Program-made: the position numbers and the translations under genes
Shown here: positions 11,721-63,273 of the stretch, piece after piece
Layout of the letters: every line of letters starts with the position of its first letter
Numbering within the stretch: position 1 is the stretch's first letter
From: Myxococcales bacterium
GTDB lineage: Bacteria > Myxococcota > B64-G9
DNA length: 64,000 nt
Assembly: GCA_012798435.1 (NCBI GenBank)
Contig: JAAZNF010000001.1
Span: 1 to 64,000 of the forward strand
Reading direction: 5' to 3'
Notes under the pieces: generated by a model
What the model was told of the DNA's origin: nothing
The model's database searches: none
What the model saw: only the letters and a program-made list of their open reading frames with translations

Positions 11721-11781
11721 TCGGCGGAGCGGCGACGTCGATGAGCAGCCGCGCCATGTCGCCAATTATCGCGGCGCGCAA

Positions 11782-11837
11782 GGCGGATCCTCCATGCAGC
11801 GGAGCCGGCTTGGGGCGAGCAGTTAGGAGGACCCGCC
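11782..11837. terminator. Terminator-like hairpin after the acylase/lyase operon
   Basis: Twelve-base arms GGCGGATCCTCC and GGAGGACCCGCC pair with one mismatch around a 32-nt loop, 61 bp after the stop at 11720. There is no T-tract, so it may only stabilise or mark the mRNA end. The rest of 11721-11905 shows nothing else clear. Confidence 0.3.
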
Positions 11838-11905
11838 GTTAAGCAGCCGCGCCTCTGCTATCTGTTCGCGGCGCGCAGGGTGAGCAAGCCGCCGCGATTG
11901 CTTCT

Positions 11906-14732: not shown

Positions 14733-17700
14733 ATGAGAAGAGCAATTTTCTTGACGATGGCGCTTGTGCTTCTGGCGGCGGTGGGGAGCTGCAACCCGGG
14801 CGTTCACCTCAACCCCTGCCCCGACGGCGGAACCCTGGTGAACGGCGCCTGCACCAGCGGCCAGTGCGGCGACCGCCTGTGCCCGCCGGGGTTCTATTGC
14901 GACAACGCCACCACCGAGTGCCGCGAGCTCACCTGCGTGAACGTGGTGTGCGATCCGCCGCTGGTGTGCTCTGGCGGCCACTGCTACCCCACCTCGTGCA
15001 GCGAGTCGAACCCCTGCCCCGGCGCGGGCGACGTGTGCATCGACAACACCTGCGTCTCCCAGGGCTGCGTGGGCGTGGACTGCCCGCCGAATCAGGTGTG
15101 CGCCGCCGGCAAGTGCTACCCCACCTCGTGCAGCTCCACCAAGCCCTGCCCCGGGGTCGGCGAGGTGTGCGTCGAGGACGAATGCGTCCAGCCGAGCTGT
15201 GTCGGCGTCACCTGTCCGGCGGGCCAGGTGTGCGCCAACGGGCGCTGCTATCCCACCGACTGCAACGAGGTGGGCTGCTACACCGAGTTCGAGGTGTGCG
15301 AGAACGGCCGTTGCGTGTCAAAATCCTGCGCCAACGTCACCTGCCCGCCGAACCAGGCCTGCTCCAACGGGCAGTGCTTCCCGGTGGACTGCAACGGCCA
15401 GAACTGCTGGGACTTCGGCCAGGTGTGTTACGAGGACCAGTGCGTATGGCAGGACTGCATCGGGGTCACCTGCCCCGCCGGCCAGGTCTGCGCCCGCGGG
15501 AGCTGCCTGGGCGACAGTTGCGGCTCGGTGTCCTGCCCGGTCGACCACGTGTGCTACGACGGCGTGTGCGTCAAGGTGAACTGCGTGGGCATGCAGTGCC
15601 CGGCCGGCCAGATCTGCGCCGACGGCGAGTGCGTGGCCACCGACTGCACCCAGACCGGCTGCGGCCCCACCGAGGTGTGCGTGGGCGGCCAGTGCGTCCC
15701 CAATGACTGCGCCCACATCACCTGCCCGGCCGGCCAGGTCTGCGCCGCGGACCTGCAGTGCTACCCGGAGGACTGCGCCACGCCGTGCCTGCACTACGAG
15801 GTGTGCGTCGGCGGCGTGTGCACCGACCAGCTGTGCATCGGGGTGAGCTGCCCCGGCACCCAGATCTGCATCGGCGGCCAGTGCCGCGAGCCCGACTGCG
15901 GCGGCACAGACTGCGCCGCCGACGAGGTGTGCGAGAACGGCATCTGCGTGAAGCGCGAGTGCGCCGCCGACCGCTGTTGCCCGCCGATCCTCTGTCTGGA
16001 ATCGAACCAGTGCCAGACCTTCGCCTGCCAGGTCGGCACCTACACCTGCCTGTACGACACGGCCAACCGGCAGCCCGCCTGGGGGCTCAGCGGCAGCACC
16101 TGCACCGACGTCGATCCCTGCACCATCAACGACGCCTGCAACGGAGGCCTCTGCCAGAGCATCCCCATGCCCTGCGACCCCGGCGAGGTGTGCGTGGCCG
16201 GAGTGTGCCGCTGCGCCAGCACCGGCCCCGACTGCCAGGCGAACGAGACCTGCTGCGTGAGTATCGCAGAATGCCACGACCTCGCCGTCGACATGCAGCA
16301 CTGCGGGGCCTGCGGCCGGGTGTGCCAGCGCGACCACGCCACGGCCAGGTGCCAGGGCGGGGTGTGCAGCATCGACCAGTGTAGCCCGCTGTGGGACGAC
16401 TGCGACGCCCAGGACGGGAACGGCTGCGAGACCTCGCTGGAGACGCTGACCGATTGCGGCACCTGCCGCACCCCCTGCAGCGCCAGCGGCGCCACCACCG
16501 CCTGCGACGGCGGGGTGTGCCACATCACCAGCTGCGACTCCGGTTTCGGCGACTGCGATGGCAGCGTCGCCAACGGCTGCGAAAACACCCTGGACTCGCT
16601 CACCGACTGCGGCGCCTGCCGGGTCACCTGCGCCCGCACCAACGCCACCGCTTCCTGCGCCGGCGACGTGTGCCACATCCAGACCTGCAACCCGCTGTGG
16701 GACAACTGCAACGGCGTCGACGGCGACGGCTGCGAGACCTCGCTGGAGACGCTCAGCGACTGCAACGCCTGCAACACCCCGTGCGTGCGGGCCCACGCCA
16801 GCGCCACCTGCCAGGGCGGGACCTGCCGCATCGCCGCCTGCGATTCGCTGTACGCCAACTGCAACGGGCAGGACCCGGACGGTTGCGAAACCTCGCTGGA
16901 GACGCTGACCGACTGCGGCGCCTGCGGCATTCCGTGCCAGGCGGGGGCGGCGCAGATGACCTGCGCCGGCGGCGTCTGCCAGATCGCCAACTGCGATCCG
17001 GGCTTCGGCGACTGCGACGGGAACGTCTTGAACGGCTGCGAGAACACCCTCGACTCGCTCACCGACTGCGGCGCCTGCCGGGTGAGCTGCGCCCGGGACA
17101 ACGCCACCGCCTCCTGCGCCGGGGACGTGTGCCACATCGCAAGCTGCAACGCAGGCTTCGGCAACTGCGACGGCATCGACGGCAACGGCTGCGAGGACAC
17201 CCTGGACGGGCTCGCCAACTGCGGCGCCTGCGGCACCCCCTGCGCCCGCGCCCACGCCACCCCCTCGTGCGCCGGCGACGTGTGCCACATCGAGAGCTGC
17301 AATCCCCTGTGGGACAACTGCAACACTGTCGACGCCGACGGCTGCGAGACCTCGCTCGAGACGCTCACCGACTGCGGCGCCTGCACCACCCCGTGCTCGC
17401 GCGCCAACGCCACACCCTCCTGCGTGGGCGGAAGCTGCCACATCCAGACTTGCCAGAGCGGCTTCGGCAACTGCGACGGCATCGACGCCAACGGCTGCGA
17501 GAACACCCTGGACTCGCTCGTCGACTGCGGCGCCTGCGGCGTGTCCTGCACCCGCGATCACGCCACCGCCTCCTGCGCCGGCGACGTGTGCCACATCCAA
17601 AGCTGCACCGCCCCCTGGGACAACTGCGATGGCATCGACGCCAACGGCTGCGAGACCGACCTCAACACCACCGCGGCCCACTGCGGAAGTTGCGGCAACA

Positions 17701-18632
17701 ACTGCGGGCAGAACGCCTACTGCAACGGCGGCTCGTGCGCCTGCAACGCCAACTTCGCCAACTGCAACGGCTCCTGGGCCGACGGCTGCGAGATCGATCT
17801 TCGCGTAAATCACGACAACTGCGGGAGCTGCGGCAACAACTGCGGCGCCAACGCCTACTGCTCCTCCAGCGTCTGCAACTGCGACTCGCTGTGGGGCAAC
17901 TGCAACGCCACCTGGCTCGACGGCTGCGAGACCCCCACCAACACGCTCGTCAACTGCGGCGGTTGTGGTGTCGCCTGCGACCTGGCTCACGCCACCGAGA
18001 GCTGCAGCACCGGCACCTGCCAGATCACCGTCTGCGACAGCCTGTGGGGCAACTGCAACGGGAGTCACGCCGACGGCTGTGAGACCCAGCTCACCTCGCT
18101 CGCCAACTGCGGCGGCTGTGGCGTGCCATGCAGCCTGGACCACGCCTCGGAGTCCTGCGCCTCCGGCACCTGCCAGCTGGTGAGCTGCGACGGCGGCTGG
18201 TGGAACATCGACAACAACCAGAACAACGGCTGCGAGTGCGGCGACGGCAGCGACGCCCCCGAGACCTGCGCCGGGGCTACCAACCTGGGCACCGTGAGCC
18301 CCGGGAATCCCTCCGTCCAGGTGAGCGGCGTCATGGCCCACCGCACCGGCTACCACACCGACCAGGACTGTTTCTGGCTCACCTACAACGACCCCGATCC
18401 CGCGGCCGGCACGTTCAACATCAACCTCTCCGGAAGCGGCGTCCTCATGACCATCTGGCGCGGTGGCTGCAGCACGGCCGAGTGCGTTTCGGACGACGTG
18501 CAGTACCAGAGCCGCTGCTCGAGCCTCGGCGGGACCTGCCAGAGCGGAAACAACTTCAGCCTGTACATCTGCATCCACGCCTCGTCGAGCCCGGTGTGCT
18601 CGGCCTGGAGCCTCACCGCCACGCGCAACTGA
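14733..18632 (+). CDS. Giant cysteine-rich repeat lipoprotein
   Basis: This 1299-aa protein starts at ATG 14733 with GAGG 7 nt upstream and a lipoprotein-type signal (LVLLAAVGSC). Residues about 25-450 consist of short EGF-like units of the form C-x-GVxCPxxQVCxxGxCYPTxC. Residues about 550-1150 are twelve tandem units of 51 residues (two are 46), each like CNPLWDNCNGxDGDGCETS followed by a DCGACxxPC segment and a CxGxxCHI segment. Two unit flavours, NTLDSLTDC and TSLETLTDC, interleave. The C-terminal about 125 residues (from APETCAGATNLG) form a cysteine-paired beta domain, perhaps PPC-like. The very high cysteine content implies a disulfide-locked surface fibre. The function is unknown; adhesion or envelope structure is an inference from context with the OmpA protein. 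Confidence 0.88.
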   Translation: MRRAIFLTMALVLLAAVGSCNPGVHLNPCPDGGTLVNGACTSGQCGDRLCPPGFYCDNATTECRELTCVNVVCDPPLVCSGGHCYPTSCSESNPCPGAGDVCIDNTCVSQGCVGVDCPPNQVCAAGKCYPTSCSSTKPCPGVGEVCVEDECVQPSCVGVTCPAGQVCANGRCYPTDCNEVGCYTEFEVCENGRCVSKSCANVTCPPNQACSNGQCFPVDCNGQNCWDFGQVCYEDQCVWQDCIGVTCPAGQVCARGSCLGDSCGSVSCPVDHVCYDGVCVKVNCVGMQCPAGQICADGECVATDCTQTGCGPTEVCVGGQCVPNDCAHITCPAGQVCAADLQCYPEDCATPCLHYEVCVGGVCTDQLCIGVSCPGTQICIGGQCREPDCGGTDCAADEVCENGICVKRECAADRCCPPILCLESNQCQTFACQVGTYTCLYDTANRQPAWGLSGSTCTDVDPCTINDACNGGLCQSIPMPCDPGEVCVAGVCRCASTGPDCQANETCCVSIAECHDLAVDMQHCGACGRVCQRDHATARCQGGVCSIDQCSPLWDDCDAQDGNGCETSLETLTDCGTCRTPCSASGATTACDGGVCHITSCDSGFGDCDGSVANGCENTLDSLTDCGACRVTCARTNATASCAGDVCHIQTCNPLWDNCNGVDGDGCETSLETLSDCNACNTPCVRAHASATCQGGTCRIAACDSLYANCNGQDPDGCETSLETLTDCGACGIPCQAGAAQMTCAGGVCQIANCDPGFGDCDGNVLNGCENTLDSLTDCGACRVSCARDNATASCAGDVCHIASCNAGFGNCDGIDGNGCEDTLDGLANCGACGTPCARAHATPSCAGDVCHIESCNPLWDNCNTVDADGCETSLETLTDCGACTTPCSRANATPSCVGGSCHIQTCQSGFGNCDGIDANGCENTLDSLVDCGACGVSCTRDHATASCAGDVCHIQSCTAPWDNCDGIDANGCETDLNTTAAHCGSCGNNCGQNAYCNGGSCACNANFANCNGSWADGCEIDLRVNHDNCGSCGNNCGANAYCSSSVCNCDSLWGNCNATWLDGCETPTNTLVNCGGCGVACDLAHATESCSTGTCQITVCDSLWGNCNGSHADGCETQLTSLANCGGCGVPCSLDHASESCASGTCQLVSCDGGWWNIDNNQNNGCECGDGSDAPETCAGATNLGTVSPGNPSVQVSGVMAHRTGYHTDQDCFWLTYNDPDPAAGTFNINLSGSGVLMTIWRGGCSTAECVSDDVQYQSRCSSLGGTCQSGNNFSLYICIHASSSPVCSAWSLTATRN
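16380..18185 (+). repeat. Twelve in-frame tandem repeats of 153 bp (two of 138 bp)
   Basis: Ten units of 51 codons and two of 46 codons (units 9 and 10) add up exactly to 1806 bp, followed by a partial unit ending near 18238. Units 2, 5, 6 and 8 and units 1, 3, 4 and 7 form two sub-types. High similarity between non-adjacent units points to unequal crossing-over or conversion. The period follows the protein, so this is not a CRISPR. Confidence 0.85.
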
Positions 18633-18695
18633 ACGGTAGAAAGCGCGACGATTTCAGCTGCCCATCCTCGAAGAGTTGATATGCCAAACTCTGCG

Positions 18696-18837
18696 AGCCT
18701 TCGCTCGGCTTGTGCTGTCAAGGGTCTGCGCGGGCTGCGCCCGCTGCGATCCCTCCGGGATTCCCTCCGGTCACCCTTGACAGCAGCCGAGCTTCGGCTG
18801 GGTCTGCTGACAAGAGGAGCATGCCACCATGCTCCTC
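18696..18837 (-). repeat. Structured dispersed repeat, copy 1 (minus orientation)
   Basis: Read on the minus strand, a perfect 10-bp hairpin (GAGGAGCATG, 4-nt loop) at 18814-18837 is followed by a bulged stem at 18696-18799. The stem is AGCC, a 4-nt internal loop, CTCGGCT, GCTGTCAAGGGT, a variable loop, ACCCTTGACAGC, an ACA bulge, AGCCGAG, and GGCT. The variable loop holds two small hairpins of its own. It occupies most of the 300-bp gap 18633-18932 between two converging genes and lies downstream, in sense, of the diguanylate cyclase. The rest of the gap shows nothing clear. Confidence 0.8.
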
Positions 18838-18932
18838 CTGTGCGCGAGGACTGTCGGGTAAAACTTCGATGAAGACGCGGTCTGAACGCATCCCCCTGTT
18901 TACCGGAGTCTCTGATCTCGCTCCCGGAGGCA

Positions 18933-36318: not shown

Positions 36319-36364
36319 TCGCGTCTGGCCGCGCTTGCTCTTGCGGCATCGCGGCCAGACGCGA
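36319..36364. repeat. 40-bp hairpin repeat, copy A
   Basis: Perfect 15-bp arms (TCGCGTCTGGCCGCG and its complement) enclose a 16-nt loop. The inner 40 nt (36322-36361) match 59000-59039 at 34 of 40 positions, including the loop core GCTCTT-CGGC. Confidence 0.75.
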
Positions 36365-36444
36365 AGGGATTTTTACCCGGTCGCGCTGACTGCCTGGGCC
36401 ATGCGAACCGGCGCACCGGAAGTTTGACAAGATCTTCTTGGGAC

Positions 36445-36570
36445 AGGAAGAGCAGGCCCGCAGGCTCTTCCTATCAGCGGATTCAGCCGGAGCCCGACCG
36501 CAGTCAAGGGCGAGCGTAGCGAGTCGCGAAGCGATCGCAGACCCTTGACGGCACAGGTCGGGCGAAGGCT
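36445..36570 (+). repeat. Structured dispersed repeat, copy 2 (plus orientation)
   Basis: A perfect 9-bp hairpin (AGGAAGAGC, 10-nt loop) is followed by AGCC, GGAG, CCCGACC, GCAGTCAAGGG, a 31-nt loop, CCCTTGACGGC, an ACA bulge, GGTCGGG, CGAA and GGCT. Compared with copy 1 the 7-bp outer helix differs at three positions, each with its partner changed to match. One A-G mismatch lies in the inner helix. Confidence 0.8.
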
Positions 36571-36697
36571 ACCGGAGCGTGAAATCACGCGCGAACGCAC
36601 TGGCCACGTGGGCCCCGCTTCCGCGCGGCAGGTGGTCGACATCTCGCAGGTGGGTGCGAGAGCAACATTTTTGGCAAAGCCGGGGCGAAGGCCAGGT

Positions 36698-58999: not shown

Positions 59000-59039
59000 C
59001 GTCTGGCCGCACTCGCTCTTTCGGCGTTGCGGTCAGACG
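59000..59039. repeat. 40-bp hairpin repeat, copy B
   Basis: CGTCTGGCCGC pairs with GCGGTCAGACG (one G-T wobble) around an 18-nt loop. It matches 36322-36361 at 34 of 40 positions. It lies just before the stop of the converging MYXO-CTERM gene; the rest of 58810-59050 shows nothing clear. Confidence 0.7.
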
Positions 59040-63013: not shown

Positions 63014-63096
63014 GGTGCGAATCTCAGGATGTCGCAAGGGGGCTCGTCCCCTTGAACCCCCGGTACCTCACCCCGAAATCATCCTCTCCATCGAAG

Positions 63097-63210
63097 ATGA
63101 AGGGAATGTCTGCATTCCCTTCATGGATGCCAGGACAACTGGAGCCCGACCGCTGTCAGTGGCGAGCGAAGCGATCGAAGACCATTGACAGCACAGGTCG
63201 GGCGGAGGCT
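63097..63210 (+). repeat. Structured dispersed repeat, copy 3 (plus orientation)
   Basis: A perfect 12-bp hairpin (ATGAAGGGAATG, 4-nt loop; 63097-63124) precedes GGAG, CCCGACC, GCTGTCAGTGG, a 19-nt loop, CCATTGACAGC, the ACA bulge, GGTCGGG and GGCT. Relative to copies 1 and 2 the inner helix shows one further compensated pair (G-C to T-A) and one G-T wobble. It lies in sense 84 bp after pgsW, in the 260-bp gap 63014-63273; nothing else is evident there. Confidence 0.8.
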
Positions 63211-63273
63211 ACACCGTAAAGCAGCCGCGCCCTGGGCCACTTTCGCGAAGCGAATCCCGACGGGACTGCGGGA

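What the first reader, a model, noticed from the sequence alone, without database searches (positions are those of the whole stretch)
36445..36570. Dispersed structured element with compensatory base changes (three copies)
Copies at 18696-18837 (minus), 36445-36570 and 63097-63210 (plus) share one architecture: AGCC, 4-nt internal loop, 7-bp helix, 11-12-bp helix, loop with a conserved GATCG-AGAC, returning strands with an ACA bulge, then GGCT. The outer helix is CTCGGCT/AGCCGAG in copy 1 and CCCGACC/GGTCGGG in copies 2 and 3, i.e. three paired substitutions. Copy 3 adds one more paired change (G-C to T-A) in the inner helix. Such covariation indicates selection for a folded RNA or single-stranded DNA. 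Possibilities: a REP-like element moved by an unseen Y1 transposase, a 3'-end mRNA structure, or a small RNA. I know no named family that matches, but could not search.
Basis: partly seen in the sequence, partly recalled or inferred. Interest (0 to 1): 0.8.

Follow-up and report, generated by a model that had tools for sequence, protein, structure and literature searches.

The report
Dispersed foldback repeat with minihairpin head
The three copies belong to a family of about 60 short, self-folding DNA repeats scattered between the genes of one uncultured bacterium (probably a myxobacterial relative); they look like relatives in kind of REP/BIME repeats, but are larger, built from unusually stable "GNA" minihairpins, and found nowhere else searched.

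Summary
Three window copies share one fold, and the genome has about 60 clear copies (59 at E<1e-14, 74 at E<=0.01). In 56 full-length copies 95% of pairs are standard, and there are 197 two-sided changes against 69 in shuffles.
Each copy is about 137 nt: an upstream hairpin, a linker, and a long hairpin whose loops are nearly all G-N-A. It has a GNA/GRA internal loop and usually three apical C(GNA)G minihairpins. That motif is known for extreme stability in DNA (PMC4686876). GNA loops lie on one strand only (114 GNA against 2 TNC; genome background 310 against 303).
Copies are extragenic and avoid divergent promoters (2 of 42). They show no target duplications, are mosaic with other repeat modules, and are absent from 194 other genomes of the phylum and all other collections searched.
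Best reading: a new REP/BIME-like miniature element, spread in trans, probably through a folded single strand. The enzyme is unknown. Two partial Y1 (RAYT-like) genes exist, but the palindrome beside them is different. The GTAG tag and 20-50-nt size that define REPs are not met, so it works like a REP but is not filed as one.

The parts
36436..36572 (+). Element copy 2, full 137-nt unit
   Evidence: CM R1 hit, 146.6 bits, E 6e-28
36445..36472 (+). Upstream hairpin P0 (AGGAAGAGC...GCTCTTCCT)
   Evidence: Sequence; columns 13-22 with 27-39 of A2, 94-95% paired, six of ten pairs with two-sided changes
36485..36570 (+). Main hairpin: foot AGCC/GGCT (36485-36488/36567-36570), 8-bp stem (36492-36499/36556-36563), 11-bp stem (36500-36510/36542-36552)
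   Evidence: Sequence; helices 3-5, 95-98% paired
36489..36491 (+). 5' side of the 3x3 internal loop (GGA; GNA in the family), opposite GAA at 36564-36566
   Evidence: G and A of the GNA side invariant 56/56; opposite side G 55/56, A 56/56
36511..36523 (+). Apical minihairpin 1: C-GA-GC(GTA)GC-GA-G with tandem G.A mismatches
   Evidence: GNA in 48/56; pair 81-94 covaries C-G/T-A
36524..36534 (+). Apical minihairpin 2: TCGC(GAA)GCGA
   Evidence: GNA in 39/52; pair 97-103 is G-C in 31 and C-G in 18 copies
36535..36541 (+). Apical minihairpin 3: TC(GCA)GA
   Evidence: GNA in 50/56; pair 106-130 is C-G 28, T-A 20
36553..36555 (+). ACA bulge on the returning strand
   Evidence: Columns 142-144: mostly R-N-A, last A 52/56
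18694..18848 (-). Element copy 1, with an additional apical minihairpin (GCGGGC-GCA-GCCCGC)
   Evidence: CM R1 hit, 117.7 bits; sequence
63088..63212 (+). Element copy 3, one apical minihairpin fewer, degenerate foot (AACT/GGCT)
   Evidence: CM R1 hit, 114 bits; sequence
36322..36361 (+). Upstream hairpin module Ah (GCGTCTGGCCGCG...CGCGGCCAGACGC), found upstream of about a fifth of copies and also alone
   Evidence: nhmmer family, 46.7 bits; 12 of 57 copies carry it upstream by simple pattern

Best explanation
It is a family of miniature, non-coding, dispersed repeats of the REP/BIME kind: about 60 copies of a 137-nt unit without a gene, copied in trans to many 3' extragenic sites and combined with other hairpin modules into mosaics. 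The element strand folds, as a single strand, into an upstream hairpin plus a long stem crowned by C(GNA)G minihairpins. The most likely use of the fold is recognition and protection of a single-stranded DNA intermediate by a HUH (Y1-type) or similar single-strand transposase. SHOWN here: dispersal, copy number, conserved fold, strand-specific GNA loops, extragenic placement with avoidance of divergent promoters, random orientation, absence of target duplication, mosaic structure, restriction to this genome among those searched. INFERRED: that copies move at all today, that the intermediate is DNA, and which enzyme acts.
For: Copy number and dispersal. Covariation. GNA loops in three apical hairpins and GNA/GRA in the internal loop; control against all triloop hairpins in 849 kb of the same genome. 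C(GNA)G is the extraordinarily stable DNA minihairpin (PMC4686876). G.T and A.C mispairs equally frequent (43 and 39 in stems) whereas tRNAs of the same genome have 18 and 0. 43 of 44 sampled copies outside genes; convergent 18, tandem 22, divergent 2, against 49/79/68 available spacers of at least 150 nt; this is the published REP distribution (PMC3733652). Orientation 13 same/9 opposite in tandem spacers. Sharp 3' boundary at GGCTA. No TSD. Unique flanking genes. Mosaic modules and half-copies broken at one place. Two Y1 genes present.
Against: No empty site could be shown, because no close relative of this species is held. The strict GTAG tag of RAYT substrates is absent: the complement of the 3' end reads GTAGCC in only 25 of 65 copies. 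The palindrome upstream of the Y1 gene on C75 (GTCCGGATTT...AAATCCGGAC), with a similar imperfect one at the C125 gene, is unrelated to the element. Nearest-neighbour identity is 77-95%, median 85%, so there is no sign of a recent burst. No bias to one replication strand (18/26, from weak GC skew).
Confidence: 0.55

Rival explanations
1. An RNA element of the host: a 3'-UTR structure (mRNA stabiliser, attenuator, terminator aid) or small RNA, domesticated at many sites and kept by selection on the transcript.
For: Most copies lie downstream of genes, many between convergent genes; several stand just before intrinsic-terminator-like sequences (L003, L013); stems change about three times less than the linker between sister copies, and 9 of 26 pair differences are compensated.
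Against: Orientation to genes is random (13/9); no excess of G-U over A-C; loops are GNA triloops rather than RNA tetraloops; no Rfam match; absent from all relatives, even those of the same family.
Confidence: 0.2
2. A structure without a function of its own: copies spread by homologous or template-switch recombination between extragenic spacers, and palindrome correction by intrastrand template switching produces paired changes without selection on folding.
For: Paired changes are found with few wobble intermediates; upstream hairpin and main stem variants reassort freely; half-copies break in the palindrome.
Against: Correction would erase the GNA/GRA internal loop, the tandem G.A mismatches (53 of 54) and the ACA bulge, but these are among the most conserved unpaired features; it does not explain GNA triloops with free N.
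Confidence: 0.12
3. A classical MITE mobilised by a DDE transposase.
For: Size (about 140 nt), copy number and lack of coding match.
Against: No terminal inverted repeats at the ends, no target-site duplication; sampled proteins show no multi-copy transposase family.
Confidence: 0.06
4. The non-coding RNA or recombination site of a known guided or site-specific system: TnpB omega RNA, IS110 bridge RNA, retron or group II intron RNA, or integron attC.
For: Long bulged hairpins with a variable tip are reminiscent of attC sites and guide RNAs; one reverse-transcriptase gene exists.
Against: No TnpB (control rings) and no IS110 transposase (control rings); no integron integrase above cut-off; no attC-type RYYYAAC/GTTRRRY ends in the sequence; only one RT gene, against some 60 copies in unrelated places; no Rfam match.
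Confidence: 0.04

Closest known systems
REP sequences and BIMEs with RAYT/TnpA-REP (REPtrons; GTAG families)
   Same: Dispersed extragenic palindromes, tens of copies or more, located between unidirectional and convergent genes, mosaic with other motifs, imperfect stem with conserved mismatch or bulge; Y1 genes in the genome
   Different: About 137 nt instead of 20-50 nt, two hairpins with a row of apical minihairpins, no strict GTAG tag, palindrome at the genome's Y1 genes unrelated
TIRtrons (RAYT-like TIRYT genes with TIR repeat families; PMC3733652)
   Same: The genome's Y1 gene on C75 has an unrelated palindrome upstream (and C125 a similar imperfect one), and repeat families occur
   Different: No link shown between that palindrome and this element
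Bacterial MITEs (NEMIS, ERIC, RUP)
   Same: 70-300 bp, dispersed, extragenic, strong secondary structure
   Different: No terminal inverted repeats and no target duplication found
Integron attC sites
   Same: Long imperfect hairpin with internal loop, extrahelical bases and variable tip, read as folded single strand (from general knowledge)
   Different: No R-box core sequences, no cassette arrays seen, no integron integrase over the cut-off
GNA DNA minihairpins (d(GCGAAGC); PMC4686876)
   Same: Identical motif: C(GNA)G with short G-C stem
   Different: Described there as short stable oligonucleotides, not as a row of heads on a genomic repeat

Membership tests
REP/BIME (GTAG families) | High copy number, dispersed, extragenic palindromes | tested here: met
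   About 60 copies; 43 of 44 sampled outside genes
REP/BIME (GTAG families) | Location between unidirectional or convergent genes, rare between divergent genes | tested here: met
   22/18/2, p=3e-5 against available spacers
REP/BIME (GTAG families) | Conserved terminal GTAG (or CGTC) tetranucleotide | tested here: not met
   Complement of the 3' end is GTAG in 25 of 65 copies, otherwise ATAG, CTAG and others
REP/BIME (GTAG families) | 20-50-nt unit | tested here: not met
   137-nt unit, 122-155 nt range of full-length hits
REP/BIME (GTAG families) | Cognate RAYT gene flanked by the same repeat | tested here: inconclusive
   Two Y1 genes, both cut by contig ends; visible 5' flanks carry a different palindrome
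MITE | Terminal inverted repeats and target-site duplication | tested here: not met
   No TSD signal; ends TCCT.. and ..GGCTA are not complementary
Known Rfam RNA | Match above gathering score | tested here: not met
   0 matches in window; best sub-threshold 13.9 bits against 45
TnpB omega RNA / IS110 bridge RNA | Nuclease or transposase gene in the genome | tested here: not met
   PF07282 and PF01548 absent, controls ring; genome 97% complete
Integron attC | RYYYAAC/GTTRRRY ends and an integron integrase | tested here: not met
   Ends are (C)AGCC/GGCT(A); TIGR02249 below cut-off
Element acting as folded ssDNA | Binding or processing of the single strand by an enzyme | not testable with these tools
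   Needs biochemistry

The most novel reading that the evidence does not exclude
A new class of miniature mobile element whose transposable form is a folded DNA single strand with a head of consecutive C(GNA)G minihairpins, recognised by an enzyme that reads GNA turns rather than a GTAG tag. This would be a naturally evolved use of the extraordinarily stable DNA minihairpin.
Probability: 0.25. Interest if true: 0.8.

Novelty: new variant of a known kind. Interest (0 to 1): 0.58.

Why it matters
If right, it widens REP/BIME-like repeats from short tagged palindromes to large multi-hairpin elements without the tag, and gives a natural genomic example of a fold assembled from GNA DNA minihairpins. 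Copies keep the fold through many paired changes, so they offer a ready alignment for finding the enzyme that reads it. It also warns that strong covariation in bacterial genomes need not mean a structured RNA: the balance of G-T against A-C mispairs and the loop type can help tell DNA folds from RNA folds.

Tried and rejected
Searches for the element elsewhere found nothing: genome contigs, viral contigs, phylum genomes by CM and by pattern, plasmids and phages. The collection scans have no positive control because the own genome may be left out there; the pattern itself was checked on the window. Y2/IS91 transposase: none, but the control genomes did not ring either, so this is uninformative. 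Replication-strand bias: none, but GC skew is weak. An argument that private mutations fall equally in stems and loops was dropped: the measure is biased by hypervariable columns, and a sister-pair count shows stems changing at 6% against 17% in the linker. GTAG tag: looked suggestive (TAG conserved) but fails as a strict tag.

Full report
Observation. The three copies were read directly. A blastn search of the genome in which the window lies (G000, 5.05 Mb, 129 contigs) with copy 2 gave 44 matches, 40 of them at E 3e-20 or better. A covariance model built from 31 copies finds 74 places at E<=0.01, 59 of them below 1e-14. Most hits are 137 nt long, with variants of 122-155 nt.

Anatomy. From 5' to 3' on the element strand: a short conserved start (TCCTGgaaCAGGA or TCTTCgatGAAGA); an upstream hairpin GAGGAGCATG-CCTG-CATGCTCCTC; a linker (aTatcaGCGattTC); then the main hairpin. 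The main hairpin has a foot AGCC/GGCT, a symmetric internal loop G-N-A/G-R-A, an 8-bp stem, a 3-nt bulge (mostly ACA) on the returning strand, and an 11-bp stem. The head is a row of minihairpins: C-GA-GC(GNA)GC-GA-G with tandem G.A mismatches, TCGC(GNA)GCGA, and YY(GNA)RR. Copy 1 and several others carry an extra minihairpin (GCGGGC-GCA-GCCCGC flanked by GCA/GCA). Copy 3 and a few others lack one.

Covariation. In 56 distinct full-length copies, 95.1% of 2,267 pair cells are standard, against 88.5% in shuffles. 197 cells have both sides changed (shuffles 69), and 19 of 41 pairs have at least one two-sided change (shuffles 10.9). No shuffle of 500 reaches any of the five measures, and sliding the strands by one to three columns drops pairing to 30-40%. 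Some pairs are evenly split (63-150: C-G 25, T-A 25; 71-139: T-A 24, C-G 21), and one is a double transversion (97-103: G-C 31, C-G 18). Variants of the upstream hairpin and of the main stem occur in all combinations, so they changed repeatedly or recombined. Related copies share changes, so these counts are cells and not independent events.

RNA or DNA. Three points favour a DNA fold; none is proof. First, the loops. GNA occupies the three apical loops in 48/56, 39/52 and 50/56 copies, with all four bases at N, and the GNA side of the internal loop in all copies. Among all triloop hairpins in 849 kb of the same genome outside the elements, GNA (310) and its complement TNC (303) are equally rare, 5.7% and 5.6%; inside the elements the counts are 114 and 2. 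C(GNA)G with two or more G-C pairs is the mini-hairpin DNA reported with Tm near 78 C and nuclease resistance (PMC4686876). Second, mispairs in the stems are G.T 43 and A.C 39; an RNA under selection should tolerate G-U more than A-C, as the tRNAs of this genome do (18 and 0). ARAGORN's own rules help that control, so the contrast is only indicative. Third, orientation relative to neighbouring genes is random.

Genomic setting. With a simple codon-usage gene caller on 849 kb, 43 of 44 copies lie outside genes: 18 between convergent, 22 between tandem and 2 between divergent genes, while spacers of at least 150 nt number 49, 79 and 68 (p=3e-5 for avoidance of divergent spacers). In the window, copies 1 and 3 lie between convergent gene ends and copy 2 lies in a tandem spacer, antisense to both genes. 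Genes next to copies show no recurrent family. The family conservation ends sharply at GGCTA on the 3' side; no target-site duplication is found.

Mosaic. Upstream of the 137-nt unit stands either a hairpin Ah (GCGTCTGGCCGCG...CGCGGCCAGACGC) or one or more units of AAAACCTGCTGACAAGGAAAA; by simple patterns these are seen in 12 and 14 of 57 copies. Ah also occurs alone. A second family, B (GGCGGGTCCTCC...GGAGGACCCGCC with an outer GGCGCG/CGCGCC), has 12 copies in the sample. At C91:40782-41054 a B copy lies between the 5' half and the 3' half of an element, and other half-copies also end near positions 69-73. This resembles the mosaic organisation of BIMEs.

Who moves it. The genome holds two genes with Y1_Tnp (RAYT-like) domains, both truncated by contig ends. 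Upstream of the one on C75 lies a palindrome GTCCGGATTT...AAATCCGGAC, and near the one on C125 a similar imperfect one; neither is related to the element. RAYT-like genes with unrelated terminal repeats are known as TIRYTs (PMC3733652). TnpB and IS110 transposases are absent where controls ring, and no integron integrase exceeds its cut-off. The acting enzyme therefore remains unknown.

Distribution. None of eight same-family genomes and none of the other genomes of the phylum has a match (195 searched with the own genome). Two scans of GTDB contigs, two of viral contigs, and plasmid and phage searches found nothing. Copies are 77-95% identical to their nearest relative, so the family is not freshly expanded. 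Stems change about three times less than the linker between sister copies, and about a third of pair differences are compensated, which fits selection on the fold during spread.

Membership. It behaves like REP/BIME repeats by distribution, copy number and mosaic make-up, but fails two defining features of REPs: the GTAG/CGTC tag (25 of 65 copies) and the 20-50-nt size (PMC8266576). I therefore call it a new variant of the REP/BIME kind by behaviour and do not file it as a REP.

Noticed in passing
window 11767-11870: Copy of a second dispersed foldback family (B: GGCGGGTCCTCC...GGAGGACCCGCC within GGCGCG/CGCGCC), 12 copies in 849 kb, at times next to or inside the main element
   Followed up: partly
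window 59000-59039: Stand-alone copy of hairpin module Ah
   Followed up: partly
window 36322-36361: Ah hairpin upstream of copy 2; its 3' part followed by a T run also scores as terminator-like (36349-36364)
   Followed up: partly
L115 783-1053 (C91:40782-41054): Element split into 5' and 3' halves around a B copy, a possible nested insertion
   Followed up: partly
L132 13000-13035; L133 about 440-475; L121 487-522 and 18759: Palindrome GTCCGGATTT...AAATCCGGAC upstream of the Y1 gene on C75, a similar imperfect one at the Y1 gene on C125, and related copies in L121: possibly their own REP/TIR family
   Followed up: partly
L098 10459, L107 16623 and 17773, L112 9961 and others: AAAACCTGCTGACAAGGAAAA units, often in tandem and usually just upstream of the element, sometimes without it
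   Followed up: partly
L105 1520-1604, L111 2645-2727, L120 5931-6013: Further conserved repeat of about 85 bp (CGCGAACGGGTCCTGCC...TCTCTCCCGAAAGATCGTTC), three copies in 849 kb
   Followed up: no
window 14757-18632: Long predicted gene next to copy 1 with internal DNA repeats at 16300-18180; similar repeats in L096 and L132
   Followed up: no
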